The position numbers were made by a program, and so were the translations under genes. This document shows positions 6,107 to 62,045 of a stretch of 64,000 nt of DNA, piece by piece. Origin of the DNA: Lepidostoma basale (Eukaryota > Arthropoda > Insecta > Trichoptera > Lepidostomatidae); assembly GCA_022606425.2 (NCBI GenBank), contig JAHDVF020000074.1, forward strand, positions 372,001-436,000, given 5' to 3'. How positions within the stretch are numbered: the stretch's first letter is position 1; the number at the start of each line of letters is the position of its first letter. The notes under the pieces were generated by a model. That model was not told the origin of the DNA. It ran no database searches and saw only the letters and a program-made list of their open reading frames with translations.

Positions 6107-6400
6107 ATTAAAATACCGTTAAATTGAAACACTGTTATTATAATTATATCACAATTAATTTAATTTCTACGAAATTGTCGCGATAGCTGTTTCGCTTGCC
6201 AAGGTTAGCAGCATCTGCAGTCAATTGTTGATTGTAACACCTGATGATTCAAACATTAGTTAGCGAAACAGCTATCGCGAGAATTTTATAGAAATCAAAT
6301 CAATTGGGTTACTATAACAGTGTTTCAATTAAATGGTTAATAATGTTGAAATATCAAAGTGTCGCGCCAAAATACTGGATTATCTAATGTAAAGTTTCCA
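6107..6400. repeat. F1 inverted-repeat element with two hammerhead-like centres
   Basis: Long imperfect inverted repeat. The outer arms carry AATTGAAACACTGTTAT and its complement; the inner arms carry GTCGCGATAGCTGTTTCGC and its complement. Each arm ends in a hammerhead-like motif, on the minus strand at 6172-6220 and the plus strand at 6232-6290. Downstream of the right arm is the shared F1 tail TAATGTTGAAATATCAAAGT, also found after the copy near 61850. Confidence 0.7.
6241..6276 (+). ncRNA. Hammerhead-like motif, F1 family
   Basis: CTGATGA box at 6241-6247 and GAAA at 6265-6268, then CAGCTATC. Both core boxes are intact, but stem II (UCAAAC with GUUAGC) has mismatches. Stem III reads CAGCUA rather than the family CAGCUG. 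Probably a decayed copy. Confidence 0.5.
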
Positions 6401-9224
6401 ATTATTTAAGTCAGAAAGTATTGGTTAGCAAAATTGTCAAATAAAATAGATATTATTTAAGTCGCTTTTGTGTGGACCCCACTGGCTACCATTTCGGATT
6501 TTTTCCTCAGTTCAATTAAGTAACAGTAATTTTACTGGGCTTATATTGAAAATTTCTCTCTACTCGGATATAAGGAACCTATTATAGATGATCACGCTTT
6601 CCCAAATATTTATGATTTTTTTTAAACCCTTATAGGTCGGCTGGCTGCATTCACAGTAAAAAAAAACTAACTTGAATGTATCTTGTAAACCTCATAACTT
6701 TATTTCCTTACTACAATTGCACGTTAAATAACGATGAACTTAGAATTCTGTCTACAGCTGTAAATGTAGTCAATCGCAGAACTAGACAGTTTTTTTACTG
6801 CTAATGAAGCAATCGTAGTTTATAAAGTGAACTCGTACTTTATACAGTGCAAAACACAGTGATAACATCAGAACGATCCATTTTATTTTACAATTGCGCA
6901 CGGTGATGATTACCGAGGAACTACAATTTATGTTTTATTTCATTTCTCCACATCAACTGAATGCAAGAACTTTGTATTTTATATATTCCTCGTCAATCAA
7001 TCATAATATGAACTGCACATAGTAGGATGTTTCAAGACCGAGGAGCCTGGCAATCTTCAATTAAGAGTTTCGACCCTAAATAAATGAGAAATGGTTAGGA
7101 GAGAAGAAAATATGCCATAACGACATAAAAACATTGATCAATATCAAGTAATCATTATTTTGTATGAAATCAACTTATCTAGCGTGTGATCGTTGACCTC
7201 ACACACGCGTAAGTTCATTCCAGTCGGGAACGTCGCGCGAGCAAGACGTGTGTACATTTAATTTCTTGCACTCATTTTGTAATATTGTTCGTCTTATAAT
7301 TCATGACGAAATTATGTTATTTCCTAAATGCAACAATTAAAATATTAAATAATAATAATAATCATAAACACATTTATAACTGGACGCTCAGCATTCAGCA
7401 TAGTGGCTAACGAATGAATCAAGTTATTACTAGATTTACAGTGTTAACACTTGATTTACAGTGTTAACACTTGAATTAGAGTATTAACACTAGATTTACG
7501 TTGCTTAACTCATAATTCTTTATTTTGTTTATAAATTCGATTTACGGTGCTTAATTCATTGTTTTAGAACACCACTATAAAATGGTAATTTAAAATGATT
7601 TCCGTTAACTTTTATACTTTCTTGTTAAGAAAAAAAAAGCTAAATCTCATTAACTCTTAACGGTTTTACTTCAAAAAGCCTTTCTTTGCGTTCTCTTGTT
7701 TTCTTTCCCATTACCGGACAATTAAATTATGTGCCTTAAAAATCTTTTGATTGAAATTTATATCAAATTCGCAGCGAGCGGTTATTAAAAATTCTTACAA
7801 ATTGAGCGAATTTAGATAAATAATCTTCTTTGTTCAATTTCTGCCATGAAACGTGCCTTCTTTAATATTGTGGAATTTACAAAAAATATTGGATGGTATA
7901 ATTTAGTACATATTTTACAAAATATTGAGTATGTACTAGTATATGTGAATACGTATACCCTTAGTAGAGTATTGTATTTTATTATCTACGAGTATCTATT
8001 GGTATTCGTAAATATGTGACTTTAAGTATATCTAAGCTTCTTTTTACGCGACTAAGTTTACGTACCAAAACTCTCACTCCTTCTGAAGATTAAAGATTAT
8101 TTTCAGTTATAAGATTTGTATTTGCATTTCATTAATAAGATATACAACACAATTAATGTTGGTTAGTAGAAAATAAAATTTTAAATATGTTGTATTTTCA
8201 TAACACTTTTTACACTTTTCACAAACATGTTTTGTACCGTGCACGTACTTTCAAAGTGTATTGTTTATATAAATTTATACTAATGAAGGACGGTCTGAAA
8301 TATGTTTATGAGAAACGCAAAAAATTCGTAGTTTTTTAAATGTTGTTCAAATATGAATCCAAAACACCAGTATCGTAGTGGGATCCAAAAATACCTTCAA
8401 TTTAGCCAATTTAATTTGTTGATATCATCACACGAAATGCCTTAAAATGTACTTAAATAATTTAATGAATTCACAGTAAACGCACAACATTAATTTATTA
8501 ATAAAAAAATCCATAAAATGTCTCTTCAATCCAACGTCAATAATAGAAATTTAACATTAAATAACCTTCACATTTTATAAATTTAAAACTCCATTAAGTA
8601 TAAGTAAAGAAAAAATTATAAACTTTATTTGTTCCTTTTATCCCACAATCTAACTAAATAATAATTAAGCCTACCTCTAGACTTAACTGCTTCTCTCCCC
8701 TTTCTTTTAGTATATAAGAAACGATTTTTATCTCATTTTATTGATAAAACTTCTACACCAAAGAAAGGCGTCTGTGACCTGGAACATGTAAAAACGTGAA
8801 AATACAATGTTTCAAAAAATTTATCAAATTTGAATCCACAACACAGAGTGATAACGAATATAGAAGAACTAATGAGTTCTCATTTGTTATATGAAATTTC
8901 GTGCTTGTGCACTAGTTTATATAGTCGTTGAATATGATACTTAAGTCCAATGATTCAATTCAGCTGTGTCGTCAATATCCTGCGTGGTCTAACCAGAACA
9001 TGCAAAGCCACTCTGACCACCTTCAGTTGAACTTGCCATAGCGATGCGCATTGTTCATTTAACGATAACGTATAACTGAACTATTCCCGTAGAGACCACT
9101 ATGTCGCATTGCTAACTTAGTCCAGAGGAGAATGTCCTTAAGAGAAAGGTGAGGTTATTTTAATAATTGAGATAATAGTTTTTCAAAACCACTAACTCAC
9201 AACCGTCTTTTCAGAAAAATATTA
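6401..9224. other. Long AT-rich stretch, mostly featureless
   Basis: No convincing exon, LINE or transposon was found. A GC-richer patch occurs at about 8930-9130, and a short tandem repeat (listed separately) at 7428-7503. The rest is AT-rich with short random frames. Confidence 0.5.
7428..7503. repeat. Short tandem repeat, about 20-bp unit
   Basis: Four adjacent imperfect copies of a unit close to GATTTACAGTGTTAACACTT. The second and third copies are nearly identical; the first and fourth have substitutions. Confidence 0.8.
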
Positions 9225-9310
9225 TTATTATTGTTATTTTGTTCAGTGGCTATTTGTACAATTACAGCGCGAGCCAAATCGATGATAAGAAGAGTCAAAC
9301 TCCATGATGA
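9225..9310 (-). repeat. SINE-related tail fragment
   Basis: Shares the block CAGCGCGAGCCAAATCGATG with the region beside the minus-strand SINE at 46955-47185 (there CAGCGCAAGCCAAATCGATG), preceded by a TTATTATT run in both. The tRNA-like head is absent. Confidence 0.4.
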
Positions 9311-9383
9311 ATCCTTAACTCGTTACCAAAACTGTATTTGTATGATTTATGAAATAAAATAAAAATTAGAAGTAAATAATACA

Positions 9384-9652
9384 ACGTTACGGACGTTAAG
9401 GTCCATAAGATTTCATATCTGGGTCACATTCTGCGGGGAGATAAATACAGTTTGCTCCAACTAATACTGATGGGAAAAATTGAGGGGCAGCGTGGTCCTG
9501 GTAGAAGGCAAACGTCATGGCTTTGCAACATAAGAGACTGGGCCGGGATGAAACATGTGGGGGAGCTGTTCCGGGTTGCGCAATATAGAGAAGCCTTCGC
9601 CAGAGTGATTGTCAACGTCAGGGGGACCTGATACGGCACGTGAAGAAAAAGA
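9384..9652 (+). mobile_element. Family C LINE 3' end
   Basis: Encodes, across frame breaks, KISYLGHILRGDKYSLLQ, a GRRQTSWLCNIRDW block and a terminal EAFARVIVNVRGT-like peptide, ending with an AAGAAAAAGAAA tail. The same terminal block occurs at 12853-13352. 5' truncated. Confidence 0.75.
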
Positions 9653-11654: not shown

Positions 11655-11658
11655 TAAA

Positions 11659-11718
11659 TTATTATTACTACACTGATAAAGGGCTTCTGTGTTCCGAAAC
11701 ATGTTTAAGTTAATAAGT
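11659..11718 (+). ncRNA. Hammerhead-like motif, F3 family
   Basis: Box CTGATAA at 11673-11679 (one change from CUGANGA), a GGG...TCC stem II, GAAA at 11696-11699, then CATGTT. Flanks TTATTA (before) and TAATAA (after) can form a distal stem I. The order of elements matches the F3 copies at 25559 and 59507. Substitution of the conserved G in the box makes activity doubtful. Confidence 0.5.
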
Positions 11719-14735: not shown

Positions 14736-14801
14736 AAAACAAATGGCATACTTAAAGATAAACTTAATCAATTAAATTAAAATACAAAGGATTGAAACTT
14801 A

Positions 14802-16439: not shown

Positions 16440-16700
16440 AATACCCTGTTTTTATTCCACTTTTATTATAAAAGTGGAATGAAAACAGTGTTTTTATAAT
16501 AATTACTGTCTCTCTTGTCTTTATTCCGACAGCGACAGCGGCTAGAGTCAAACCATTATGTCGATGCCAGCTTATCTGGCATAACTAGCCTTTGTCGAAA
16601 TAAAGACAAAAGTGGAAGTAGTTATTTAAAAAACATAGTTTAATTTTAATTTTTCAAAAATATAAGAAAAAAAATTACGCGAGTGTTTTAATTTGATAAC
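16440..16700 (+). repeat. F2 element, second copy, with degenerate hammerhead-like motif
   Basis: The flanking arms TTGTCTTTATT (16515-16525) and AATAAAGACAA (16599-16609) pair perfectly. Between them are a TGTCGA box remnant at 16559-16564 and an intact stem II (GCCAG with CTGGC), but TAAC replaces GAAA. A separate 27-bp palindrome (ATTCCACTTTT and its complement) sits at 16454-16480. The F2 tail follows. Confidence 0.6.
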
Positions 16701-17062: not shown

Positions 17063-17260
17063 ACAACACTTTATTATAATTGTTAAAATAAATTAACAAA
17101 TGAATTCATTTTTATATCTGCAAAACTTACCGTATCATAATTTTTTTAAATATTAATTTATAATAGTATACTCGTATACGAAACGATTTTAACAATATTT
17201 CCACTGATGAAGGGGTTCCGTGTCCCGAAATACATGTGTGTTCAATTTATAATAAACTGT
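17063..17260 (+). repeat. F3-type inverted repeat with hammerhead-like motif
   Basis: The arms CAACACTTTATTATAATTG (about 17073) and CAATTTATAATAAACTGTTG (about 17242) are inverted. Just upstream of the right arm is a plus-strand motif: box CTGATGA 17204-17210, extra A, GGG...CCC stem II, GAAA 17227-17230, and palindromic ACATGT 17232-17237. Both core boxes match consensus, but an extra U follows GAAA and the cleavage triplet is GUG, which a hammerhead would not cut. Confidence 0.6.
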
Positions 17261-19907: not shown

Positions 19908-20160
19908 AAAAATATTTCTATTTTTCTTTTTTATACACCTTGTATATACAATACTTATATTAAAAAAATAAAATTATGTAGACATGTTTCGGACAAACAG
20001 TCCTTCTTCGGTAACGATACATTTTTAAAAATATTATAAAATTGTTTTTTACTGAAAAAGTAGGTACTGATTTTCCGAAACATGTAGGTATATATAATTA
20101 ATTTTTTTTAAATATAAGTTTTGTATATACAAAATGTATAAAAAAAAATAGAAATAAGCC
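19908..20160. repeat. F3 inverted-repeat element with paired hammerhead-like motifs
   Basis: The outer arms share TTGTATATACAA-type sequence near a TATTTCTATTTTT block and its complement. A minus-strand motif sits at 19981-20011: box CCGAAGA, extra A, stem II GGAC with GUCC, GAAA, CATG, GTC. A plus-strand motif sits at 20052-20087: box CTGAAAA, GAAACATGTAGG. The minus copy has one change in the box (U4 to C); the plus copy lacks a good stem II and the GUC triplet. Confidence 0.7.
19981..20011 (-). ncRNA. Hammerhead-like motif, F3 family
   Basis: Minus strand: box CCGAAGA (20011-20005), stem II GGAC/GUCC, GAAA (19990-19987), self-complementary CATG, GTC (19983-19981). Nearly identical to the better copy at 59507-59560. 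Confidence 0.6.
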
Positions 20161-20545: not shown

Positions 20546-22023
20546 CATTTTTTTTAAATAATATATATTTTTTTTTTATATTTTCATTTTTTATAATTAT
20601 TACTGGATAAAAAAGGAAGAAAATTGGCGTGCTAGGTTAACAACCTACATACCGTAAAAAAATAACCTAAAGCTCAAAGTACAGAGAAGAAAACCTCGGA
20701 CAATAAAGGACTACTCTGGAAACCGACCAAAGCTAAAAAACGGACACGAGTACGAAAACCAAAACAAAACTATTAATATTATTAATATTACTGTTTTAAA
20801 TATTTTTGTTGTTATTTATTATTTATATTTATTGTTAATGGCTATTTGCATCAATTTCTTTAACAGTTTTTCCTTATATTTTTTGTAATAGTAATAAAAA
20901 ACAAAAAGTAAGATGTTATCGGTAATCTAATACATCCAATACATCCTTATGAACTTATTGGTCAAACAATATTATAAACAAATCTCAGATTAATGTCAAA
21001 TGAAAGATTGATTAAAGCAGAAATCCCCCAAGCAATTAACTATTCGTTTGAAAGATTCTGATGTCCACACTGCATAGTTTAAAATGCATTAGTCTGCTTT
21101 AGTCTGGAAGTGAAACCATTGCAAACCTTTTACCACATATCTTTAATAATAAAGTTTATTGATTTGAGTTAAGATGGTTTAATTATCGTTTACACTTTGA
21201 AAGCGTTAAATATTGGGAGCATTTTAGAAGTCCATAGATACTGAAATACAAAGGTTTACGAGACTTACAGAGAAAGTTTTAAACTTATCTTAATCTGTAT
21301 GAATTGGCATGGGAAAATTCACAGTGGAACTATTTTTTATAGTGGAAGCGTCGCTTTTCCATAAAAATAATTAAATAAAATAAGTTACAAGCATTTGATA
21401 ATACCTCGGAAACAAACGTTTCTCTGAAAAAAATGTATCTCTTTGTGAACAATAATTTATTAATAATTCTAATTATTTATTAATTAAATTTTTTAATAAA
21501 TTGTTGTTAACAAATTTGTGCCGCATATAAAAGAAAAGTTTCTCTATTCAAATTTTAATTTTATACACCATTTTTAATCAACAATATATTTTATTTGCCA
21601 TTTTTTAAATAAATAAATTGAAAATAATTTTATTTTAATTTGATTATTTAAAAGGATATGCAGTCTCACAATTTTTTGTGCAACAGTTAATGAATCGTTC
21701 TTTTCATGTCACGAGAAAGTCCCATGACCAGCGAAACCGCTTGGAAAGTACTTTTTAAGTTGTATACTTGAGTAAACAAATATCTGAATATCCGATGATC
21801 ATACGTACATTTGGATGATTTTAAATTAAATAACAATCATGTTGCTTTGGCTAAAGACAGTATTATTGTGTATAATTATCAATAATCAGTTACATATAAA
21901 TTTATTAGATAAATCAGTGTTTTAAAAATTAATTTTGATATTTGAAATTTCATGGAAGTTCATCGTAAAATATATTATAAAAATATTGTTTTAAATATGT
22001 ATTTAGTTAAAATCCACTAATAT
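20546..22023. other. AT-rich stretch without recognised features
   Basis: A weakly GC-richer piece at about 20640-20770 has no family match. The rest is AT-rich. Confidence 0.5.
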
Positions 22024-22106
22024 GTGCGTCTTCGAATAGTTTTGGCAGCTTGCTGAAAATATCAGGAGATGGCAGCGGGCTGCCGAAACCAGCCGAAGAC
22101 AAAAAC
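22024..22106 (+). ncRNA. Three-helix hammerhead-like motif, F7 family
   Basis: GTCTTCG (22028-22034) pairs perfectly with CGAAGAC (22094-22100). Stem II GGCAGC (22071-22076) pairs perfectly with GCTGCC (22079-22084). GAAA follows at 22085-22088. The box region reads CAGGAGA (22063-22069), two changes from CUGANGA, and no GUC follows, so this copy is probably inactive. It is unlike the other families in arm sequence. Confidence 0.5.
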
Positions 22107-22189
22107 ATAGGTAGATTTTAACATGTCCATTTAAAAAATATTTTTTATATTTTCATTTTTATTATTAACCATTGTTTTGATATAAACAC

Positions 22190-22400
22190 TATTATATTTC
22201 AACATTATAAAATGTTTATGTTTTAAAACACTGTTATAATACGTATAAAAATTTATATTTTGAGACTGTTGCGACGGGTGTTTCGGGAACTTTTGGCATC
22301 ATCAGGTGATACGCAAAACTCTTATTGATGATGCCAACACAGGTAGGCAATCAGCTGTCGCGACAATCTCATAAAAAATATTTATTATGTCTAGAACCAT
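22190..22400. repeat. F1 inverted-repeat element with paired hammerhead-like motifs
   Basis: The arms GAGACTGTTGCGAC and GTCGCGACAATCTC flank the pair. The minus-strand motif spans 22305-22273: intact CTGATGA box, shortened stem II, GAAA, CACCC, GTC, GCAAC. The plus-strand motif spans 22325-22359: box TTGATGA, GCCAAC stem II, GAAA lost, CAGCTGTC present. Confidence 0.7.
22273..22305 (-). ncRNA. Hammerhead-like motif, F1 family
   Basis: CTGATGA at 22305-22299, GAAA at 22284-22281 and GTC at 22275-22273 are all consensus. Stem II has lost its family pairing (GCCAA...GUUCCC), and stem III CACCCG is no longer self-complementary. Confidence 0.5.
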
Positions 22401-23605: not shown

Positions 23606-23863
23606 TATATTCAAATATTGAAACTTCATAAAATTTTAATGGTTTGACTTAACAGTCAAATTAGATAATGTTAAACAATTTAAAAAATAAAATCAAATAG
23701 TCCAATGTTTTGGCCGAAACACTATGATACCTTTATTTGAAAAATGTTTATTTTTATTACTGTTAACATTATTATTGTTAAAATTTATAAAAATGCTATA
23801 ATATCACAATTTATTTTTATTCACTGAGTGTCGTGACAGCTGTTACAATAAAACTTGTACCAC

Positions 23864-23903
23864 CTGATGATGCCAACATCGCTTGGTGAAACAGCTGCCG
23901 ACA
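23864..23903 (+). ncRNA. Hammerhead-like motif, F1 family
   Basis: CTGATGA at 23864-23870, extra T, stem II GCCAA with TTGGT (5 bp), GAAA at 23888-23891, CAGCTG, then CC in place of the UC of GUC. The triplet GCC would not be expected to cleave. Otherwise close to the best F1 copy at 37135-37170. Confidence 0.6.
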
Positions 23904-24004
23904 CTCTAAGTGAATAAAAATAAATTGTGATATTATAACAGTGTAACAAATTTTAACAGTAATACAATTAAATCAAACAATTTTCAACAAACAAGTACAA
24001 TCAA

Positions 24005-24415: not shown

Positions 24416-25489
24416 GGAATGGCTTCCTATTAAAGTCTAAACAATTTTATTTCCGGTTTGCCTATTCAATTCGAAGTTATAAACCTAGATAGTAATTATA
24501 TTTTGCACTACACTCTCGGGAATACGATAATCAAATATAGAAATAATATATTATGACGTGGCATGACTATTACGTTTTAAGGTCACGAGTTGTATTTAGT
24601 TCCGGTCTGATTCTGGACTCTGCATACATACGCACTTTCCGCTTTATTTTCCCAGCGAATAATATTTAATTTCACAGACATATGAAAGGTAGAGTCAGTT
24701 TATTATATTTTATTGTTAATGCTGTTAAGATATTTTAAAGAAATTTGTATAAAACTAATACCGGCCTTGCGAAGTACCAACTGGTCTACTTCAGAATAAA
24801 ACGGGACCAGGGCAAACGGAAAAGGAATTCGAATGATAACAGATATGTTTCCCAGAGGAAAAGGGAATAAGAAATGATATGTTTTCCAGACCCCATTTGC
24901 AAATAGTTGTGCCCACGAAAATTTTGATAGATTGTCGCTAAGGCTTAATAAAAATATGCCTCTCGTAAAAGAAACTGATATCTTTGATGTTATATGCCCG
25001 CATCAAGATATAATTTGATGGAAGTAATCATATCACGTTTTTATTATAACAGCAAACCGTATACTCTTTAATGTTTTACTCGTTATGTATACAGCTCATG
25101 AGGAATACGTATATCATAACATATTAATATAAATATACACACTTCATATAGGCAGTGGTGTATATCCCGTCAAAGCTACTTTACTTAACCTCACTAAAAA
25201 CAAATATAATAAATACATGTCACACATATTTAGAATGCGACAATATATTTCTTCTATATTCGCTTTGTATTGTGGATTCAGAGTTGAATAAATATAACTG
25301 CACTTTATATATTTATATGTTTAAAATGATTTTTGTTTTAGCAACTACTATTTTTGCCGCCCGGTTTCGATAATTCGTCGGGGCCCTGAAAGGGATATTA
25401 TTGAACATGGTTGTAATTAAAAATTATTTGTGGTTTAACGAAATACTATAGAACTACAAAAAATGTGTTAACATAATTACGTTAAAATA
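24416..25489. other. AT-rich stretch, one weak hammerhead-like trace
   Basis: At about 25340-25400 the minus strand reads CCGACGA, AATTAT, CGAAACCGGGCGG. The order is reminiscent of a degenerate core, but there is no usable stem II. Otherwise nothing supported. Confidence 0.4.
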
Positions 25490-25558
25490 ATTGTCTTTTT
25501 CTTTTTTATGTACTTTGTATATACGAGTACAACACTAACTTTAAAAAAAATTAAAATA

Positions 25559-25603
25559 AATATCAGACATGTTTCGGGCAACCAGTACTTCCTCAGTGAT
25601 ATT
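25559..25603 (-). ncRNA. Hammerhead ribozyme candidate, F3 family, 7-bp stem I
   Basis: Minus strand: AATATCA (25603-25597), box CTGAGGA (25596-25590), extra A, stem II GTAC...GCCC, GAAA (25575-25572), CATG, GTC (25568-25566), TGATATT (25565-25559). AATATCA and TGATATT form a perfect 7-bp stem I directly beside the core, and the box fits CUGANGA because position 7 is free in hammerheads. The weak point is stem II, where two of four pairs are lost relative to the plus-strand copy next door (GGAC/GTCC). Confidence 0.72.
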
Positions 25604-25659
25604 ATAAAGATACATATTTATAAACCATTTTATAATTTTTAAATATGTGTCTTTATGAA

Positions 25660-25700
25660 ATCACTTAGGAAGGACTGGTTGTCCGAAACATGTCAGATTT
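25660..25700 (+). ncRNA. Hammerhead-like motif, F3 family
   Basis: Box CTTAGGA (25664-25670, G5 to U), extra A, perfect stem II GGAC/GTCC, GAAA at 25685-25688, CATG, GTC at 25692-25694. Stem I is weakened by a missing base after GTC. Complementary defects to its inverted partner. Confidence 0.6.
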
Positions 25701-25824
25701 TTTTTTTCTTTATTGTTAGTGTTGTATATACAAATAATATAATATAAAAAAAGAGAAAGACAAATAAAACATCTACAACACAAAGTGTGTCGAAAAAAGT
25801 AGAAATACATAAAAAATATTTCAT

Positions 25825-26030: not shown

Positions 26031-26134
26031 TACATCATTGTTTAAGAAACATAAAATAAAATATATCGTACAATTATATTACTTTCCAATAAATATCATA
26101 CTTAATAAAATTGTCTATCTAATCTTTGTTATAC

Positions 26135-28957: not shown

Positions 28958-29260
28958 AAGTTTATACTTTATGCCAGTTGCTCGTATGCTGTGACGCATT
29001 TCATATCAGAAATCGCATGGTTCCAGAAAAAAAATAATAATGATATGTTTTTCAAATAATCCATGTATGTTATAGATATCGATCTATTCCTAATGAAATT
29101 TCCTACAAGATGACATAAATTAAATTTTGATTCATCGAGTCATATGCTTGATATTTAGATAAAGTTAGCGGTAAACTGAATTGACCACATGGGAGCGAGC
29201 GTTTTGTTTTGAACACGGTACGTTAAGGGTTAAAAATAAAATAAAATGTCTTCTATATTC
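28958..29260. other. AT-rich stretch without recognised features
   Basis: Nothing supported. Confidence 0.5.
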
Positions 29261-29471
29261 TTATTGTTTATATTTAAAATAAAATAAAAATAAAAACACT
29301 ACACTTTGTTTTTCACCACTATATGGTTATTTTAATTGCCTAATAACTTTATTACGAAACCCTGAGAAAGCTTGGGTACAAGCGAAACTAGTCGCCAATT
29401 AAAATAATCGCATAGTGGTGAAAAACAAAGTGCAGTGTTTTTATTTTTATTTTATTTTAATATAAACAATA
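29261..29471. repeat. F4 inverted-repeat element with hammerhead-like centre
   Basis: Arms at 29302-29338 and 29396-29432 pair almost perfectly (CACTTTGTTTTTCACCACTA and complement). Further outer pairing lies in AT-rich sequence (ATATTTAAAATAAAATAAAA and complement). The single plus-strand hammerhead-like motif sits at the right side of the loop. Confidence 0.8.
29361..29396 (+). ncRNA. Hammerhead-like motif, F4 family
   Basis: Box CTGAGAA (29362-29368, G8 to A), extra A, perfect 5-bp stem II GCTTG/CAAGC, GAAA at 29384-29387, self-complementary CTAG, GTC at 29391-29393. The distal helix is supplied by the long arms. The G8 change would be expected to cripple cleavage. Confidence 0.62.
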
Positions 29472-29584
29472 AAAAAAATTTAATGTCTTACCACAAAGTG
29501 AATGCTTGTTGTAAAAACATCGTTCATGAAACAAAAAAAAACTTTACAGAATTACTCGATTCGTGAAATTAAAGTATATTATCA

Positions 29585-32282: not shown

Positions 32283-32335
32283 GACAGCTGTTTCGTTAAC
32301 CTATGTTGACATTATCAGGTGTTACAATAATATAT
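32283..32335 (-). ncRNA. Hammerhead-like motif, F1 family
   Basis: Minus strand: box CTGATAA (32318-32312, G8 to A), extra T, stem II GTCAAC/GTTAAC (5 of 6 pairs), GAAA (32294-32291), self-complementary CAGCTG, GTC (32285-32283), then GCGTAAT. Flanking GTAACAC before the box is conserved across F1. Confidence 0.6.
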
Positions 32336-32639
32336 CAAATGTTAAATTTTCGTGATTTTTTGAATATGCATTTGTTCCTATGGTCAATTGTATTGTATAG
32401 GGGAAAGTTTTTAATGTACTATATACTAATGGGGAATAAGCTGGAATTTGGTAATTTATAACATTCAATTTACATTATTTGCCTTTAAAATTTTTAAATT
32501 TTCTAATTTCTCTAATTTTTAAGGATATTTTGCAATATGCAAAATAATGTGTTCATTGTTTTGAAATGATGGTCAAAATTCACACAATGTCACTGTTTTC
32601 TATAAATTACAATTATTAAACATTTTTTCTTTATGATTC

Positions 32640-37024: not shown

Positions 37025-37350
37025 GGTCCATTGTTTTGGCCGAAACACTATGATACTTTATACTTTAAAATTATTACAGTTAATTATTAAAACACTTACA
37101 ATATCACAATTTATTTTTATTCACTGAGTGTCGTGACAGCTGTTTCGCCAACCGATGTTGGCATCATCAGGTGTTACAATAAACTAAAGTAACAAATGAA
37201 AAGACTTACTATTTATAAGGCAAAATAAATTTTTAATGAAATTAGTCTTTCTTTGATCTTCAGATTTTTGTAGATTTTGGCCTTATCAACCGTACTGGTA
37301 TTAATTAAATAGTCTATTGTTTTGGCCGAAACACTGTGATACTTCAATAT
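37025..37350 (-). repeat. F1 element
   Basis: Carries TTTTGGCCGAAACACTATGA at about 37034 and again TTTTGGCCGAAACACTGTGA at about 37320, with the hammerhead-like unit between them. The arm AAATTTATTTTTATTCACTG is identical to that at about 23810. Confidence 0.7.
37126..37178 (-). ncRNA. Hammerhead ribozyme candidate, F1 family, intact core
   Basis: Minus strand: GTAACAC, box CTGATGA (37170-37164), extra T, perfect 6-bp stem II GCCAAC/GTTGGC with loop ATCG, GAAA (37146-37143), self-complementary CAGCTG, GTC (37137-37135), then ACGACACTCAGTG. All core positions are consensus. A distal helix TTTATT/AATAAA can close stem I, but the bases next to the core (AACAC against ACGAC) pair poorly, which is the main uncertainty about activity. 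Confidence 0.7.
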
Positions 37351-39063: not shown

Positions 39064-39366
39064 TTTACTTTTAAAACACGTATCAACGAACACAAACAAG
39101 CTTTCACCAAACATACTGTTTTTTCTGAGATGGCTAACCATTCTATTGAATTTGACAATAGTTTCAATAAAAATGACACAAAATTTCTACACACAGTTAA
39201 CAATAGCAATAAATTAAACAAACTTGAAAATTTAGAAATCTTCAAGTCGATGAAATTGGGTGAAAACATAATTAATAATCAGATTCCTCCTTTTACTCTT
39301 TTCTCCTTAAATACTTTGTCTACATTTAATCTCCCAAGCTACCATTCCCAATCAAATGCAAATTAA
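39064..39366 (+). pseudogene. GIY-YIG endonuclease C-terminal fragment (Penelope-like)
   Basis: The open frame, entered from a TAA at 39061, has about 100 codons to a TAA at 39364-39366. The internal ATG at 39130 is not a real start. Motifs typical of the GIY-YIG domain of Penelope-like retroelements: KTRINEHKQAF (the R..EH block), ANHSIEFDNSF (A.H..E...F), and KLENLEIFKSMK (the conserved Glu of the domain, usually E.LEI.K), then ENIINNQI. The GIY and YIG strands themselves are absent, so this is the last part of the endonuclease only. The 3' end agrees with normal Penelope-like protein termini. Confidence 0.72.
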
Positions 39367-39595: not shown

Positions 39596-39626
39596 CTGAT
39601 GATGGAGGTATCCTCCGAAACATGTC
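39596..39626 (+). ncRNA. Hammerhead ribozyme candidate in Penelope-like 3' region (F5)
   Basis: Box CTGATGA (39596-39602), extra T, perfect 5-bp stem II GGAGG/CCTCC with loop TAT, GAAA (39617-39620), self-complementary CATG (39621-39624), GTC ending at 39626, then GGTTTT. All core bases are consensus. Only one clear pair exists next to the core in stem I (C with G), so stem I is the weak part. Confidence 0.72.
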
Positions 39627-42841: not shown

Positions 42842-42895
42842 AATTGATGCCAACTAGTTTCGCTTGGACCCAAGCTTCATCAGGGTAGTATAACA
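42842..42895 (-). ncRNA. Hammerhead ribozyme candidate, F4 family
   Basis: Minus strand: TATACTACC, box CTGATGA (42883-42877), extra A, perfect stem II GCTTG/CAAGC with loop GGTC, GAAA (42861-42858), self-complementary CTAG, triplet GTT, then GGCATCAATTATAA. CC/GG beside the core and TTATA/TATAA further out can form a bipartite stem I. Core fully consensus; GUU is a permitted but less common cleavage triplet. Confidence 0.65.
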
Positions 42896-47737: not shown

Positions 47738-48477
47738 AGAGTAGCAGTAAAAATTAAAATTAAAAATATATTCTGTAGAAATAAGTGTACATTTCGAAAC
47801 ATGTTTGTGAGGAGCACAACAAAGTATTGTCAAAATACAATGTTTTTCAATTTATTCATGAGCTGATGGCAAATATAGTGAAAGTATTTTTGTCATTTTT
47901 ATTAGTCGTTTAAATAAAGCACATATAAAATGGTATTTTAATGAAACGTTTCAACATTAAAACGCACAATAAACACGTATGGAATCCTCGGAATGAAACG
48001 ATCAATGAATACCTATGAATGTAAAAAAAATATGTTCAAATTCGTAAGTTTTACATTCTATTTGGAATAACATCGCTTGAAAAAATATGGCAGAAATTTG
48101 AAATGTAAACTATTTCCAGGGCGTATTTCATTGAGCGTGGTATGTAATTCGGAAAATCCTTCACTTTTTTCCACTTTATTTAACGTCACAAACATTTCCA
48201 TACATGTCGGCGGCAATTTGAAGGTACGCTTTCCATTTATTTATCGTTTTATAATAAAATTTTACCAGTCAAAGGGCCGGCTGGGTATTTTTACGCTTTT
48301 CATACATCATTTTGTGTTGACGTTCGTCCAAACGAGTAAATATTTTCATATTGGCTACAAACATATTTCCTGAAAGAGACTATTATATTAAAAGGCAGTG
48401 GTGACGCGTAAAAAATTCAATTGACGCACTCTCTTTGTGGTTAGACATTTTAAGCTTATAGAAATTAAATATAAAAC
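47738..48477. other. Stretch without recognised features
   Basis: A 98-codon frame (48077-48373) has no family resemblance. AT-rich. Confidence 0.45.
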
Positions 48478-48640
48478 ACTTTGTATTTAACCACGGTATG
48501 GTTATTATAATTGATACCAACTAGACCCAAGTTTCATCAGGACAATATAACAAGTTGTATTGACCTGATGAAGCTTGGGTCCAAGCAAAACTAGTTGGCA
48601 TCAATCATAGTAACCATACCGTGGTTAAATACAAAGTCTT
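48478..48640. repeat. F4 inverted-repeat element with paired hammerhead-like motifs
   Basis: The arms ATTTAACCACGGTATGGTTA and complement (about 48486-48530 and 48591-48628) enclose a plus-strand motif and a truncated minus-strand copy (CTGATGAAACTTGGGTCTAG, with the second half of stem II and GAAA deleted). Confidence 0.78.
48560..48605 (+). ncRNA. Hammerhead-like motif, F4 family
   Basis: Box CTGATGA (48565-48571), extra A, perfect stem II GCTTG/CAAGC, AAAA in place of GAAA (48587-48590), CTAG, triplet GTT, GGCATCAAT. TTGA before the box can pair with TCAA after it. Loss of the conserved G12 would be expected to impair cleavage. Confidence 0.58.
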
Positions 48641-49029
48641 TTATTATTTTTTATCAATAAGTTTAAAATTATGTATATATTCTGATGAAAGTTTCCGTTT
48701 TTTATGTTTTATTGTATTTCGAGTGACGTATTTTGTCTTATAAGCGCAATATCAAAAAATACTTATTTAGACTTCGAAGTTTTACTTCTATAATAAAATA
48801 GATAGAAAGAGAACTGACATGCGTGCATGATATAATGTATTAATGAGGAGGCGGAGAGAAGTACAGTTTGTCAGGAAAACACCGTGTTGTTGTTTATTTT
48901 TTTCTGCTTACTCTTTCGAGAAATGGTTAAGTTATTTAACTTTACCAATATTGTTCAGTCATTTATTCATTCGACATATTTATAAGAAATCATTGTTTAT
49001 ATTTAGCCTTAAAGACAAGTATCTGTTGA
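48641..49029. other. AT-rich stretch with a faint F9 trace
   Basis: GATGAAAGTTTCCGTTTTT at about 48683 and GTGACGTATTTTGTCTTATA at about 48723 resemble a decayed F9 half. A 78-codon frame (48843-49079) has no family match. Confidence 0.4.
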
Positions 49030-55174: not shown

Positions 55175-55214
55175 GACCCTAATGATGCTTCGACGGGAGT
55201 GAAACCGGTTGGTT
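55175..55214 (+). ncRNA. Hammerhead ribozyme candidate, F6 family
   Basis: GACC (55175-55178) pairs with GGTT (55211-55214) as a 4-bp stem I directly beside the core. Box CTAATGA at 55179-55185 (G5 to A), extra T, stem II GCTTC/GGAGT (5 pairs including G-U), GAAA at 55201-55204, self-complementary CCGG, triplet GTT. Stem geometry is complete; the single G5 change is the only core defect. Confidence 0.62.
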
Positions 55215-56699: not shown

Positions 56700-56960
56700 T
56701 AAAAATAGTTCATCGTTTTGACTGAAACAATATAATACTTCAACATTATTAACTGTTAAAATTTAAACCATAGTTATGATATCAAAAAAAAATTGCCACG
56801 ACAGCTGTTTTGCCAACCGATGGTGTCATCTTCAATGATGATAGTGATGACGATGATGATTATGATGCCAACATCGGATGGCGATACAGCTGTCGCGACA
56901 AAATAATAAAAATTGTAATACTCGTATTATAACAGTGTTTTAAATTTTAACATTTAATAA
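56700..56960. repeat. F1 element with paired, decayed hammerhead arms and GAT expansion
   Basis: The left (minus) arm reads GGTTGGCAAAACAGCTGTCG. The right (plus) arm reads TTATGA, TGCCAAC...GGATGGC, GATA, CAGCTGTC, GCGACA. Between them a GAT-type run (56836-56868) has apparently grown from the CTGATGATG box region. Both GAAA boxes are mutated. Confidence 0.6.
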
Positions 56961-57130
56961 TTATATAAAAATTCTCTGCTCGACGACAATAGAAGATGGT
57001 TATTTATTTAAATATATGATAACAAGAGAAAAATTGTTCGACCTTGCACAAATATTAGAAAATAAATGCAAGTTTTTTTGGACGTGTTTGTACAATATTT
57101 GTTCAGTTTGTACAATTATCCTGTAACCTA

Positions 57131-57309: not shown

Positions 57310-57339
57310 AATTATACATGTATTTTTTAAAACAATTTT

Positions 57340-57800
57340 TCTTCTGTTCTAGTTGATAACTCTTTCGGATTGACACTTGTGCTATATCTGTAATATTTTA
57401 TTGATATCTCTTAATTCTTGTACATTTTAATTATCATTGTTCTTTTGTGCTATTTGATAACTCTTTCGGATTAACACTTCTGCTATATATGTAATATTTT
57501 ATTGAAATCTATTGATTATTGTACTTTCTTATTATCATTGTTCCTTTGTGCTATTTTATAACTCTTTCAGATTGACACTTGTGCTATATCTATAATATTT
57601 TATTGGTATCTCTTAATAATTGTACTTTTTACTATCATTGTTCCTTAGTGCTATTTGATAACTCTTTCGAATTGACACTTGTACTATCTGTTTTTTATCA
57701 CTAAATACGTGAACATTCTCATCATCATTTTTCCTTTGTACTGTTTGCTAACTCTTTCCGTTTTACGCGTGTACTATATCTTTATTATATTTTTACTAAA
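57340..57800. repeat. Tandem array, about 100-bp unit, about 4.5 copies
   Basis: The block TTTGATAACTCTTTCGGATT recurs at about 57350, 57452, 57553, 57653 and 57743 (spacing 101, 101, 100, 90), with TGCTATATCTGTAATATTTT and TTATCATTGTTCCTTTGTGC in each unit. The last unit is diverged. No coding sequence. It begins right after the candidate exon. Confidence 0.9.
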
Positions 57801-58699
57801 TATGAGTCAAAATGTAAAAACAGAGGTACTGAAAAAATGTATTCGTATTAAAAACAGGGCGCATCAATCGTGCGTAGTAAAAAAAATAATTCTATCAAAT
57901 ACATCAGAACCGAACCCTATTGGAACACTCTGATACAAAATGAGGAATTATCTCCGCCGTGTTGGGCAAAAAGTACTGCTAATAAAGATATTATCAAATT
58001 TTATTAGGTCATTCTATCTTAAAAGTGAACCAATTATTTTTTCACGAAAAAGCAATCGCCTCCCCCCTTCAAGTATTCCAGTCGTGGATTTTTATGATAC
58101 AATAAACATTCTTTTTTCTCCCACATTTTCCCAAATGACTCGTACCCTTGGTTACGTCACTCGGGTATAAAATTTGTTCTTCCCTTTACCTTTTCCGTTT
58201 TACGCCTCCGAGAGCATTGGTAAACCGTTCTCCAAAATTAAGATTAAAATTTGATTTCGCCATTTTGAAATGTTAAAAGCGCAGGTATCCTAATCCACGC
58301 CCTTCATCTGGATTTCTCTCCGGAACCGGCTCACTAAAGGGAAGCATATGTCATTATTAATTTAACTCAAAGTGAAATAGTCCTAACGTATGTAAAGCTC
58401 ACTTCGGGGCCGAAATTTGTTACGTTTGATGTAAAATGTACGAATTATTAAAAGTTTGGATCAAATCTCACATTATTCACAATTTCACAGTAAACGTATA
58501 TGTGTTTTAACTCTGGTTATTTTTATACAAAGTTTAGTCATTAACGCCATTATTTCATTAAGATGATTTTTAAATTATTTAAAAATTAGTTTTTTTCATT
58601 ATTCCGTATATTTTTAAAAGCATGTTGAGAAGTTTTAATACCTTCTCTATTTACTGTTGAATTAACAATTCTGTTATCATTTTTTAAAAAAATACTATT
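57801..58699. other. Stretch without recognised features
   Basis: Two short frames (57679-57933 and 57940-58170) have no family resemblance. A GC-richer unique patch lies at about 58180-58340. Confidence 0.45.
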
Positions 58700-58850
58700 C
58701 ACTTTTTGAAAATGTCACAACAGTTGTTTCGCCAGCCAGGTTCAGTTGTTTATAACACCCGATGATTCCAAGATCGGTTGGCAAAAGTAGTTATGTAAGC
58801 TGTCGAAGTATAACAGTGTTTCGGCCATAATACTCGTATTAGACTATCTT
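58700..58850. repeat. F1 element, decayed paired hammerhead arms
   Basis: The minus arm reads GGCTGGCGAAACAACTGTTGTGAC. The plus arm has box CCGATGA (58759-58765), T, TCCAA...TTGG, AAAA. The F1 flank AACAGTGTTTCGGCCATAAT follows at 58810. Confidence 0.55.
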
Positions 58851-59439: not shown

Positions 59440-59600
59440 GTTTATTTCTATTTTTCTTTTTTATACACTTTGTATATACAACACTTATATAAATAAATAA
59501 ATAAATATTATATAGACATGTTTCGGACAAACAGTCCTTCTTCAGTAAAGATTTATTTTTAAAAATATAATAAAAAAATATTGTTACTAAAATGTACATT
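59440..59600 (-). repeat. F3 element half
   Basis: The outer arm TTTCTATTTTTCTTTTTTAT and GTATATACAACACTTATAT are identical in order to the left arm at 19908. One minus-strand hammerhead-like motif; the inverted partner is absent. Confidence 0.7.
59507..59560 (-). ncRNA. Hammerhead ribozyme candidate, F3 family, consensus core
   Basis: Minus strand: AAATAAATCTTTA, box CTGAAGA (59545-59539, fits CUGANGA), extra A, stem II GGAC/GTCC, GAAA (59524-59521), self-complementary CATG, GTC (59517-59515), then TATATAATATTTATTT. Stem I has A-U and U-A beside the core, a small internal loop, and an 8-bp distal helix AAATAAAT/ATTTATTT, a typical bipartite type I stem I. All core positions match consensus. 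Confidence 0.74.
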
Positions 59601-60789
59601 CAAACTTTTGAGGTTAGTTTTTCCTCAGCTATTAGAGTAAATCTCCATTAACTGGTTTGTTAGTATGTGAAATTTGTTTTAATGTTATCAGTAAACATTG
59701 ACTACCGTACATTAGTGTAATAGCGTGGGTACTCGCCTAATTGAACAGAAATACATAAAACACAACGACTTCTGAAAAACAAATCCCACTGAGAAAAGTG
59801 AATACCAAGTTGCCTAATTTGGCTGCTAATAGCACATTAGAATTCGGCGTCCAGTCGAAGGGCCCAAGTTTGTCAGGGCCCCGTCCTGTCGTCGCCTTCT
59901 TATCGCCCTTGTTGGCAGTAATTCGGAAAGTTTCCCTCCGACCGAGCTCGCCCTGCGTGCGCATTGTGGTAGGGCATTATATCAATGTTCAGCGGGCTTG
60001 TTTCACCGACAATCTCACAATTAACGCAATCGATGCTCTAAATATATAACGCGCGCGAATGCCGTGCTTTTTGAAGTTTTCGCCGGTCAAAATAGCCGCT
60101 TTGCAACTTGTTAGAGTGTAAACCAGCCGAGTGTTTTTATTTCTTGGAACATGAATTATGGTACCGGTAGGGGTGGTATTTCCCACATGCTAGCTGATTT
60201 AAACGATAGCACATTACACGTTACATTCATTGAATTTGTGAGTCGGAACATGGAATAAATATTATTGTGTCACTGTCTGCGTTGTGTTGTACGATGGATA
60301 TGAAATATCGCGAAACGAAATCAAAGTGTTTCGTGCAAACGTAGCTTATAAATTGAGACAATAAATTTTGGCGGGTTGCGCCTAATCTAACCTACTCCCA
60401 ATGCTGTGACTAATTTTAAACACGCACCGAAATGATTCAAAAATGGAATACTTTTGTTGTATCCATTTCGCTTTTTCTTTTATTAGGTTAATGAAATGCA
60501 TCCCCGTTTTTGTTTGCTCCCGAGTCCTTTGACAGTTTTTCACGTTAATAAAAATTCAATCTTTCATTTACATAATATCTCCAACGTAAATCGTAAATGA
60601 CAAATTTTATTGCGGGCGAAAATAAACAAAATTGATCACGAATTCAATTTAGCAAATTTACAGAGATCAATGATTGCGTATATCTTATGTACCGTTAAAT
60701 CATGGCTTTGGTTCACCGCATTTCTCTTGGGCGTGCTGGCGACCAATAGTTTACAGATGAAAAGGGATGAACTCACACTTACCCATTTC
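59601..60789. other. Unique, partly GC-rich stretch; possible host non-coding sequence
   Basis: 59740-60180 is the longest GC-richer stretch here without transposon resemblance, with a plus-strand frame (59798-60049, 83 codons) and a minus-strand frame (59964-59737, 75 codons), neither recognised. It could contain conserved non-coding or exonic sequence of a host gene. Confidence 0.35.
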
Positions 60790-61062
60790 TAACTTACGTA
60801 CTAACCAACCATCTCCCTTAAGGAGTAAGCAGAAATAATAGACCCTCACACTGTTCATTCCTGATATACTTATTTTCAGTCATGCATGCACGCACGTCGA
60901 TTTCTCCGACTCCTGAAGTGGCCGACATTAAATATTTCATCAATATGATCGTGCCACGTTTTCTGCGGTCTTCCTCTATTTCTTATTCTGTTTACGTTCT
61001 TTACACATACTTTCTTTATCATTCTTTCATTCATTAATTATTTCCATGTGTCTTTACATTCT
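60790..61062 (-). mobile_element. Family A LINE 3' end fragment (A19)
   Basis: Tail AACTTACGTACTAACCAACC, AGTAAGCAGAAATAATAGAC, CGTGCCACGTTTTCTGCGGT. Truncated 5' exactly where the tail of A20 begins. Confidence 0.7.
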
Positions 61063-61470
61063 TTAAGAACTGACTAACTAACCGCCCTATCATCTAAGGG
61101 GTAGGCAGAAAGAATGGACCGCCACACTTTTCTTTCTTGACATACTTCTCTCGATTCATCAACATTCATACATCGTATCAAGCACGTACGTCGACTGTTC
61201 GACATTCAATATTTAGTTCCAATATTTCTAGTTCCGTTGACATCGTTAACATATACTTTTTTACTATTATTTATTAATGTATTCTTTCCATGTGTCCAAA
61301 CCATCTTAAATTTTTAAATAACACTTTCATTCGCAATGTATTAATTTCTTATATTTTAATTTGACACTATATCATACACAGATTTCCAAATATTCGTGAA
61401 AGAGATCTCATTTCTACTGAATTTATTCTACTTTCATCCTTCTTTTGACAGTTCAATTAAGTGAAGCGTA
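61063..61470 (-). mobile_element. Family A LINE 3' end, broken (A20)
   Basis: Tail AACTGACTAACTAACCGCCC, GGGTAGGCAGAAAGAATGGA, CCATGTGTCCAAACCATCTT (HMERM/WFGH region) and a CTACTTTCATCCTTCTTTTG end. Heavily decayed; abuts A19 head-to-tail, as A4/A5 do. Confidence 0.72.
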
Positions 61471-61612
61471 GAACAATATTTAACCTTTACATTATTTTGT
61501 TCAAACACTTTCATCCCCAATATAATCATTTCTAATAAATAATGAATAATTAATTATGAAAGGTCATTAGTTATATTATATATATTCAGTTAAATTCTAC
61601 TTGATGATATGT

Positions 61613-61655
61613 TATCGACCAGTTTCGGAAGCTAGATGCCATCTTCTGGTCTTAT
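61613..61655 (-). ncRNA. Hammerhead-like motif, F8 family
   Basis: Minus strand: box CAGAAGA (61648-61642, U4 to A), T, GGCA...TTCC weak stem II, GAAA (61626-61623), CTGG, GTC (61619-61617), GATAAC. Arm sequence is unlike the other families. Single copy, weak stems. Confidence 0.42.
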
Positions 61656-61849
61656 TGCGAGCTGCTAAAATCAGCATAGTCATAAAATAAAATGTAATTT
61701 ACTAAATATTTATAATTAGGAAACTTAATATTATTCATTATTTATAATGATATTCAAAAAAGAAATTTCAATTAACAACATCAATAATTCACTTATTATA
61801 TTAGATTTCCATTTACAATCTATTATATTTACTATTCAAATAGAAACAC

Positions 61850-62045
61850 CATTATATTTCATTCGAAATTGCCGTTTCGTAACATGAGTTGATTGTAACA
61901 CTTGACGATGCTTACATCGGTTAACGAAACAGCTTTTGCGACAATTTCGGAAGAATCGGTTTATTATTTATGAGTGTTTTTATTTAAACCGTTAATAATG
62001 TTGAAATATCAAAATGTTTTCGCCAAAACAGTGGTTTATCTAATA
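61850..62045. repeat. F1 element with paired hammerhead arms
   Basis: The plus motif has box TTGACGA (61902-61908), T, GCTTAC...GTTAAC, GAAA (61926-61929), CAGCTT, GCGACAATTTCG. The minus arm reads ACGAAACGGCAATTTCG. The F1 tail TAATGTTGAAATATCAAAAT and GCCAAAACAGTGG follow, as after 6340. Confidence 0.6.

What the first reader, a model, noticed from the sequence alone, without database searches (positions are those of the whole stretch)
6107..62045. Window-wide census: about 30 hammerhead-ribozyme-like motifs in at least nine sequence families
Seen directly: on both strands the order CUGANGA-like box, one extra base, short stem II, GAAA, 4-6 nt self-complementary stem III, GUC/GUU recurs with different stem and arm sequences. 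Families: F1 GCCAAC/GUUGGC + CAGCUG; F2 CCAG/CUGG + CCGG; F3 GGAC/GUCC + CAUG; F4 GCUUG/CAAGC + CUAG; F5 GGAGG/CCUCC + CAUG; F6 GCUUC/GGAGU + CCGG; F7, F8, F9 relics. Because the stem sequences differ while pairing and core boxes are kept, compensatory conservation of an RNA fold is the simplest explanation. Known: type I hammerheads with minimal stem III occur in Penelope-like elements and retrozymes. Such diversity within 64 kb of one genome is, as far as I know, unusual.
Basis: partly seen in the sequence, partly recalled or inferred. Interest (0 to 1): 0.9.

Follow-up and report, generated by a model that had tools for sequence, protein, structure and literature searches.

The report
Penelope retrotransposon hammerhead ribozyme relics
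The repeated hammerhead-like RNA motifs are real: where their carrier could be identified they sit near the ends of Penelope-type retrotransposon copies, a known association, and a small sample suggests they are as dense elsewhere in this genome as in this window.

Summary
A profile scan finds 15 motifs at >=20 bits against a mean of 0.2 in 20 dinucleotide shuffles. A covariance model trained on families F4, F6 and F7 finds left-out F2, F5, F1 and F3 (E 7e-4 to 0.011), and stem II covaries. Rfam reports none. They are small type I hammerheads with one extra base after CUGANGA and a mostly palindromic 4-6 nt stem III. F5 follows, in sense, a GIY-YIG endonuclease ORF end in 39 of 60 genomic copies. 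F2 lies in both inverted arms of an element with an RT + GIY-YIG ORF. One F1 motif follows a relic endonuclease end. F3, F4, F6-F9 were not tied to an ORF. Head-to-head insertions with 3' ends outward explain much of the both-strand pattern; 4 of 4 young F2 copies have flanking repeats. The density looks ordinary here: 8 motifs in 40 kb sampled elsewhere. F2 has a fixed A6U core change (24 of 24). Most window copies are decayed; cleavage is untested. Verdict: new member of a known kind.

The parts
39596..39626 (+). F5 hammerhead, canonical core, in the 3' region of a Penelope-like element
   Evidence: 31.5 bits; left-out family found by model R1 at E 0.003; 230 nt after ORF end 39064-39366; same arrangement in genomic copies
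39064..39366 (+). C-terminal end of a Penelope-like GIY-YIG endonuclease ORF
   Evidence: 150 scored genomic relatives; the longer relative L021 matches Pfam GIY-YIG at 6e-7; no Pfam hit for this piece itself
32403..32589 (-). decayed Penelope-like endonuclease end, other family than the F5 one
   Evidence: tblastn E 4e-4 to 6e-4 to the F5-type protein; 40-53% identity when read across its breaks
32283..32318 (-). F1 hammerhead, degraded core, 85 nt after the endonuclease relic
   Evidence: 22.6 bits; model E 1.4
37135..37170 (-). F1 hammerhead, canonical core
   Evidence: 33.1 bits; left-out family, E 0.008; pair 1.1-2.1 not formed
6107..6344 (.). F1 head-to-head insertion with motifs 6182-6220 (-) and 6241-6276 (+)
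   Evidence: inverted partner score 41; arms 75%
23728..23997 (.). F1 head-to-head insertion with motif 23864-23899 (+)
61902..61937 (+). F1 relic
   Evidence: 15.0 bits, alignment to other F1 copies
56800..56835 (-). F1 relic inside an old palindromic copy 56665-57038
   Evidence: 13.5 bits; arms 66%
58759..58793 (+). F1 relic
   Evidence: 15.2 bits
15998..16365 (.). F2 head-to-head insertion with motifs 16083-16114 (-) and 16246-16278 (+), core CUGUCGA
   Evidence: 16246: left-out family, E 7e-4; partner score 50; arms
16558..16590 (+). F2 relic
   Evidence: model E 1.1; alignment to F2
59515..59545 (-). F3 hammerhead, canonical core
   Evidence: 29.5 bits; left-out family, E 0.011
19913..20156 (.). 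F3 head-to-head insertion with motif 19981-20011 (-) and relic 20052-20086 (+)
25488..25766 (.). F3 head-to-head insertion with motifs 25566-25596 (-) and 25664-25694 (+)
42852..42883 (-). F4 hammerhead, canonical core
   Evidence: 31.3 bits; a training sequence of model R1
48447..48669 (.). F4 head-to-head insertion with motif 48565-48596 (+) and a remnant at 48509-48540 (-)
   Evidence: remnant only at model E 9.4
29258..29475 (.). F4 head-to-head insertion with motif 29362-29393 (+)
55179..55210 (+). F6 motif, single copy in the window, core CUAAUGA
   Evidence: 23.3 bits; training sequence of R1
21926..22199 (.). F7 palindrome with motif 22063-22094 (+), core CAGGAGA
   Evidence: 17.4 bits; arms 69%; training sequence of R1
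61617..61648 (-). F7 motif, core CAGAAGA
   Evidence: 19.3 bits; training sequence of R1
17204..17240 (+). F8 motif, doubtful stem III
   Evidence: 26.0 bits but model E 4.9
11673..11705 (+). F9 motif, related to F3 and F8
   Evidence: 18.6 bits; model E 0.23

Best explanation
The motifs are small type I hammerhead ribozymes, or their remains, in the 3'-terminal repeat (pseudo-LTR) of several families of Penelope-like retrotransposons. Shown: the motif lies in sense downstream of a GIY-YIG endonuclease ORF for F5, F2 and one F1 relic, near the 3' end of the inserted copy. Copies are often inserted as head-to-head pairs, so both outer ends are element 3' ends and each carries an outward-facing hammerhead; this explains much of the both-strand pattern. 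Four young F2 pairs are flanked by 10-13 nt repeats, so each is one insertion event, and an extra 3' tail is on one arm only. Inferred: F3, F4, F6-F9 have the same kind of carrier (shared motif and, for F3, F4 and F7, shared head-to-head form). Inferred from published work on other Penelope elements: the element protein cuts AT-rich DNA and primes reverse transcription near the 3' end of its RNA; the 5' ends of two cDNAs, or of one self-primed cDNA, are joined. In RNA with two sense copies the palindromic stem III would pair between them and the RNA would be cut after UH. Most window copies are decayed, solitary or beside their own antisense, so they are probably inactive.
For: Scan 15 against 0.2; left-out families found by model R1; stem II covariation, 26 both-side cells against 9.7 and 93.1% paired against 69.2%, 0 of 500 shuffles; pair 1.1-2.1 in 18 of 20, p 2e-4. 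F5 motif in 39 of 60 copies of the endonuclease end, sense strand, against 2 of 60 with an antisense motif in the same span. GIY-YIG 6e-7; RVT_1 1.4e-13 plus GIY-YIG 6.6e-5 in one 758-codon open frame between 456-nt inverted arms that each hold an F2 motif. F1 relic 85 nt before an F1 motif. Head-to-head partner in 7 of 14 motifs above 20.3 bits; five of five divergent GIY-YIG pairs within 3 kb (read from the 62 rows). Flanking repeats in 4 of 4. Published anatomy: PMC3846280 (passages), PMC11167929 (section 3).
Against: No Rfam hit. Two of the five measures are not above shuffles (pairs with a both-side change 4 against 3.4; pair types 10 against 8.4), and that alignment is fitted to the model. 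Whole-flank stem I pairing is not better than between families (p 0.30); one per family, only position 1 of stem I is significant. Within the F5 family the motif is no better conserved than its flanks (0.882 against 0.893). 21 of 60 F5-type copies lack a motif >=20 bits in the expected span. F2 and F7 have changed core bases. No long ORF starts at the motif's AUG in the loci sampled. F3, F4, F6-F9 have no ORF shown. The window has no direct tandem pair, which dimer cleavage in cis would need.
Confidence: 0.9

Rival explanations
1. The palindromic repeats are foldback or MITE-type DNA transposons, and the hammerhead-like box is a terminal-repeat motif kept for transposase binding.
For: Many window copies are short palindromes without an ORF, flanked in the young F2 cases by short target duplications.
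Against: F2 palindromes contain pieces of an RT/GIY-YIG ORF with the 3' end outward; F5 copies are one-sided with an endonuclease ORF; stem II covaries as an RNA helix. No transposase was sought in F3 or F4.
Confidence: 0.04
2. They are metazoan retrozymes: short tandem non-autonomous elements with type I hammerheads, moved by Penelope proteins.
For: Type I hammerheads; retrozymes and Penelope elements are reported together in animals (PMC7229834, passages).
Against: No tandem partner above control in 26 motifs; the motif belongs to coding Penelope copies for F5 and F2. F3 and F4 could still be non-autonomous; not excluded.
Confidence: 0.04
3. The fold is kept as a structural signal for the element protein (RNA binding, reverse transcription start) and not for cutting.
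For: F2, with near-identical copies, has A6U in 24 of 24; changes at A6 are reported to lower activity (PMC3088659, passages); catalytic mutants of the Anolis hammerhead do not affect insertion in vitro (PMC11167929).
Against: F1, F3, F4 and F5 keep A6 in 105 of 108 copies; palindromic stem III in 7 of 9 families suits dimer cleavage. A6U in this setting is untested.
Confidence: 0.3
4. Chance matches to a short degenerate pattern.
For: Towards 12 bits real counts approach shuffled ones (80 against 43).
Against: 15 against 0.2 at 20 bits, repeat families, and the same motif at the same place in genomic copies.
Confidence: 0.01

Closest known systems
Small hammerhead variants of Penelope-like elements that cleave as dimers (Luense, Weinberg and Breaker 2017; title seen in the reference lists shown; text not held)
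   Same: By title: small variants, Penelope-like carriers, dimers. Here too: short stem III, palindromic in 7 of 9 families, Penelope carriers for F5, F2, F1.
   Different: Their text was not seen, so the extra base and cores cannot be compared; here no tandem pair was found in the window and F2 and F7 have changed cores.
PAc, Poseidon of Anolis carolinensis, with a hammerhead at the ORF start (PMC11167929, section 3 read; passages)
   Same: RT plus C-terminal GIY-YIG; hammerhead in the pLTR; optional 3' tail. In PAc the cut lies 26 bp after the start codon, with G8 before it; families with a T insert here read A9-U-G as AUG and place the cut 25-30 nt on (my arithmetic).
   Different: PAc is in tandem repeats; here head-to-head pairs dominate among F2 and many window copies, and no long ORF was seen to start at the AUG.
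Penelope families of Adineta vaga (PMC3846280, passages)
   Same: Inverted pLTR beside the direct one, head-to-head palindromes, 8-10 bp TSD, optional tail on one pLTR.
   Different: The word hammerhead does not occur in the main text of that paper.
Minimal and canonical type I hammerheads of a coral, more than 6000 in 16 families (PMC7229834, passages)
   Same: Many families of type I motifs in one animal genome, most of them minimal and Penelope-like.
   Different: Its canonical motifs are tandem retrozymes; none of that form was found in this window.

Membership tests
hammerhead ribozyme, small type I of Penelope-like elements | conserved core CUGANGA, GAAA, A15.1-U16.1, UH | tested here: met
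   Majority sequence of F1, F3, F4, F5; individual copies are often mutated (4 of 25 window motifs wholly canonical)
hammerhead ribozyme, small type I of Penelope-like elements | the same core in F2 and F7 | tested here: not met
   F2 A6U 24 of 24; F7 U4A 2 of 2
hammerhead ribozyme, small type I of Penelope-like elements | stem II kept by compensatory changes | tested here: met
   two of five measures there not above shuffles
hammerhead ribozyme, small type I of Penelope-like elements | stem I closing the core | tested here: inconclusive
   pair 1.1-2.1 in 18 of 20, but whole flanks p 0.30
hammerhead ribozyme, small type I of Penelope-like elements | very short, palindromic stem III | tested here: met
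   15 of 20 motifs, 7 of 9 families; F7 and F8 not
hammerhead ribozyme, small type I of Penelope-like elements | two sense copies in tandem for dimer cleavage | tested here: not met
   none of 26 window motifs; one tandem F5 pair in fetched loci, L044
hammerhead ribozyme, small type I of Penelope-like elements | self-cleavage after UH | not testable with these tools
   needs RNA in vitro
Penelope-like element | one ORF with RT and C-terminal GIY-YIG | tested here: met
   F2 carrier L103: RVT_1 1.4e-13, GIY-YIG 6.6e-5; the start of that open frame lies in the inverted arm and was not verified. F5 carrier: GIY-YIG only
Penelope-like element | pLTR, direct or inverted, with optional tail | tested here: met
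   F2; tail on one arm only in 5 of 5 insertions (L103 and L104 counted once)
Penelope-like element | short target-site duplication | tested here: met
   4 of 4 F2 copies share 10-13 nt between own flanks, 4-7 nt with flanks of other copies; L103/L104 not tested
Penelope-like element | ORF for F3, F4, F6-F9 carriers | not tested
   no full-length copies were fetched
metazoan retrozyme | tandem repeat of a few hundred bp with a type I hammerhead | tested here: not met
   (window only)
Rfam hammerhead families | match to a curated model | tested here: not met

The most novel reading that the evidence does not exclude
In this genome some Penelope families insert mainly as two-sided, head-to-head products: both cut target strands prime cDNA from element RNA, the outer ends start at two different internal start sites (hence a tail on one arm only), and a hammerhead fold sits at each outer end. 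In F2 the fold persists with a fixed A6U core, so it would serve as a structural mark for the element protein rather than as a cutter. The genome would hold of the order of 100,000 recognisable motifs.
Probability: 0.25. Interest if true: 0.65.

Novelty: new member of a known kind. Interest (0 to 1): 0.42.

Why it matters
A hammerhead census of raw sequence can be read as a map of Penelope insertions that curated RNA models miss. It offers a test of whether these elements need the ribozyme in order to move, since a family with near-identical copies has a changed catalytic core. Head-to-head insertions with flanking repeats and a one-sided tail bear on the unproven integration pathway of this retroelement class.

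Tried and rejected
Rfam at gathering and at E <= 10 gave nothing hammerhead-like. The window's endonuclease end had no relative in the protein database or the PDB and no Pfam hit above cut-off; a longer genomic relative gave it. A regular expression for a Penelope GIY-YIG signature, recalled and not from a call, found nothing of that kind in the window. A Pfam scan of two of the six frames of 15 kb found one RT fragment; the other frames were not scanned. The whole-flank stem I test failed. Within-family conservation showed no extra constraint. For F2 against its most diverged copy the motif had 1 difference in 33 against 15.8% outside (p 0.025), but a second copy had 2 in 33 against 2.8% (p 0.93), so I make no claim. 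L103 and L104 share their left flank and are counted as one insertion; the thought that the inverted structure had been copied as a unit was dropped. L103/L104 were left out of the flanking-repeat test. In one search the script's 'TSD candidate' was element sequence; one search replaced it. F4 at 42852 is not convincingly palindromic. The thought that the tail marks the longer arm was dropped: in L106 the frame on the arm without the tail runs further. No long ORF starts at the motif's AUG in the loci held (longest 117 codons). Folding two copies together gave lower energies than two single ones for four motifs, but the predicted pairings were mostly not the hammerhead ones, so it is not used as evidence. 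DNA-transposon and retrozyme readings: see rivals.
Full report
OBSERVATION. I scored both strands for CUGANGA, 0-2 extra bases, stem II, GAAA, a short self-complementary stem III and UH. At >=20 bits there are 15 motifs against a mean of 0.2 (maximum 1) in 20 dinucleotide shuffles; at >=18 bits 26 against 1.75; at >=16 bits 36 against 5.75; at >=12 bits 80 against 43. In the 20 family motifs the inserted base is T (11) or A (9). A covariance model built from six sequences of F4, F6 and F7, run with filters off, finds left-out families F2 (E 7e-4), F5 (0.003), F1 (0.008) and F3 (0.011); F9 (0.23) and F8 (4.9) are not significant. On the 16 matches at E <= 0.5, 93.1% of cells pair against 69.2% in shuffles and 26 cells are changed on both sides against 9.7, neither reached in 500 shuffles; the number of pairs with a both-side change (4 against 3.4) and of pair types (10 against 8.4) is not above shuffles. 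That alignment is fitted to the model and copies of a family are related, so the support is good but not independent. Rfam reports no hammerhead.

WEAK POINTS OF THE RIBOZYME READING. Pairing of the 30-nt flanks is not better than between flanks of different families (p 0.30). The pair next to the core (1.1-2.1) forms in 18 of 20 motifs, as C-G, A-U or U-G by family (p 2e-4; one per family 8 of 9, p 0.012); further positions are significant over all copies but not with one per family. A four-base stem III leaves only two loop bases for a C-G pair in one molecule, but it is a palindrome in 15 of 20 motifs and 7 of 9 families, as pairing between two copies needs; dimer cleavage is known for other hammerheads (PMC6155905, passages; PMC6466107, passages). 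Only 4 of the 25 motifs have a wholly canonical core.

WHAT CARRIES THEM: F5. Window 39064-39366 (+) is the end of an ORF; F5 starts 230 nt after it. Searching the window's own assembly (769 Mb, 1572 contigs) with it gave 150 scored matches of 6438 first-look candidates. I took 60 of the 150 (the best 20, the window's own copy among them, and 40 from further down) with their downstream DNA: 39 of 60 have a sense motif >=20 bits at position 216-377 of the stretch, 42 of 60 at >=14 bits (at least one of the added three, in L071, looks accidental), and 2 of 60 have an antisense motif >=20 bits within 200-500. Twelve more copies, chosen for long open frames, show it in 9 of 12, two of them repeats of L005 and L010. 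Identity among the 60 falls towards background about 70-120 nt after the motif, so the element end lies there; the motif itself is no better conserved than its flanks (0.882 against 0.893). L021, a longer relative, matches Pfam GIY-YIG at 6e-7.

WHAT CARRIES THEM: F2 AND F1. A GIY-YIG search of the genome (62 matches; 150 of 541 candidates scored) led to a 758-codon open frame in L103/L104 with RVT_1 1.4e-13 and GIY-YIG 6.6e-5, between inverted repeats of 456 nt, 99% complementary, each with an outward F2 motif. The frame begins inside the inverted arm, so its true start is not known. Among the 62 rows I count five pairs within 3 kb, all five divergent, that is head-to-head; four of the five were looked at (L105, L106, L107, L098) and all four carry F2 motifs at both outer ends. 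The F1 motif at 32283-32318 lies 85 nt after a decayed endonuclease end, 40-53% identical to F5-type proteins when read across its breaks (without joining, E 4e-4 to 6e-4). F3, F4 and F6-F9 were not tied to an ORF.

HEAD-TO-HEAD INSERTIONS. Of the 14 motifs above 20.3 bits, 7 have an inverted partner upstream, facing outward, beyond the 99% level of 600 random positions; over all 26 motifs >=18 bits it is 8, and none of the 26 has a tandem or tail-to-tail partner beyond that level. Centres differ between five F3 copies (0, 3, 11, 19 and 34 nt). Outside the window, F3 and F4 motifs in L008, L070, L074 and L020 also have such partners, while the 52 F5 motifs of the loci have none, as expected from how they were chosen. 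In L105, L106, L107 and L098 the two outer flanks share 10-13 nt with each other and 4-7 nt with flanks of the other copies; part of the 10-13 nt may be element end, so the duplication is about 8-12 bp. Each pair thus entered as one event. In five insertions (L103/L104 as one, L105, L106, L107, L098) an extra 3' stretch, the tail, is on one arm only. The arms of one locus differ at 1-4 of about 390 sites; between L098, L105 and L106 arms differ at 5-9 sites, so in these three both arms come from one source; in L103/L104 and L107 all arms are within 0-3 differences and say nothing.

PUBLISHED ANATOMY AND MECHANISM. PMC3846280 (passages) describes inverted pLTRs, head-to-head palindromes, TSDs of 8-10 bp and an optional tail for rotifer Penelope elements and favours self-priming. 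PMC11167929 (section 3) shows a Penelope protein cutting and extending both strands of the target and starting reverse transcription at two internal sites that define the tail. Both pathways fit. Perfect palindromes such as L107 (1133-nt arms, 1-nt centre) favour self-priming; unequal arms (890 nt in L105, 359 nt in L106 between the arms) favour two cDNAs. In the same paper the Anolis hammerhead cut only when protein was added, and its mutants did not affect insertion.

IS THE WINDOW SPECIAL? It does not look so. Twenty 2-kb stretches at round positions fixed beforehand (40 kb, on contigs already known) hold 8 motifs >=20 bits, 7 of them in F1, F3 or F4, against 15 in 64 kb here. From 7 in 40 kb my arithmetic gives about 135,000 in the genome (Poisson range about 54,000-277,000). 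More than 6000 type I motifs in 16 families are in print for one coral (PMC7229834, passages), so many families in one genome is known; densities were not compared across genomes.

F2 CORE. All 24 F2 copies found in window and loci read U at position 6 (21 of 24 exactly CTGTCGA); F1, F3, F4 and F5 read A in 105 of 108. L001 was removed, other repeated stretches were not, so these are not all independent. F2 includes the near-identical copies with flanking repeats. A6C and an insertion after A6 are reported as low-activity (PMC3088659, passages); A6U here is untested.

NOVELTY. Small hammerheads of Penelope-like elements are known (title of Luense et al. 2017 in reference lists; a review passage; the Anolis element). 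A passage of PMC10085705 says that no known hammerhead alignment has more than one or two inserted nucleotides between CUGAnGA and the adjacent stems, so one extra base is within the known range. In PAc the cut is 26 bp after a start codon at stem II; A9 plus the T insert plus G10.1 gives AUG here, with the cut 25-30 nt on (my arithmetic). I file this as a new member of a known kind; the A6U family is the point worth a test. I make no claim that A6U is absent from print: the key papers are not held and two searches failed.

Noticed in passing
window 26865-27800 (-), with an inverted relative at about 30610-31421: Two adjoining open frames that look like a mariner-type transposase (recalled motif, not tested with a family search); a second copy of the region lies inverted about 3-4 kb away, 89-92% complementary.
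   Followed up: no
window 10598-11191 (-): Reverse transcriptase fragment, Pfam RVT_1 2e-15, not of the Penelope kind by its look; not pursued.
   Followed up: partly
window 4281-4646, 14796-15299, 26125-26513, 40969-41328, 54603-54991, 60782-61383 and others: Another dispersed repeat family, up to 11 copies of one segment.
   Followed up: no
window 57314-57821: Tandem array with a unit of about 101 bp.
   Followed up: no
window 25585-25675: Best sub-threshold Rfam match (MIR1120, 33.8 bits against a cut-off of 86) is simply the hairpin of the F3 head-to-head insertion.
   Followed up: yes
L093 (G000:C102) and L095 (G000:C729): GIY-YIG domains in open frames of 623 and 621 codons with several other long frames around; they look bacterial (UvrC-like, by eye), perhaps symbiont or contaminant contigs in the assembly.
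   Followed up: no
L034:2-229 (-): Endonuclease end of a third Penelope-like family, about 40-53% identical to the F5 type; its downstream region was not fetched.
   Followed up: partly
L044, about 360-526: Two F5 motifs in direct tandem 136 nt apart, the arrangement that dimer cleavage in cis would need.
   Followed up: partly
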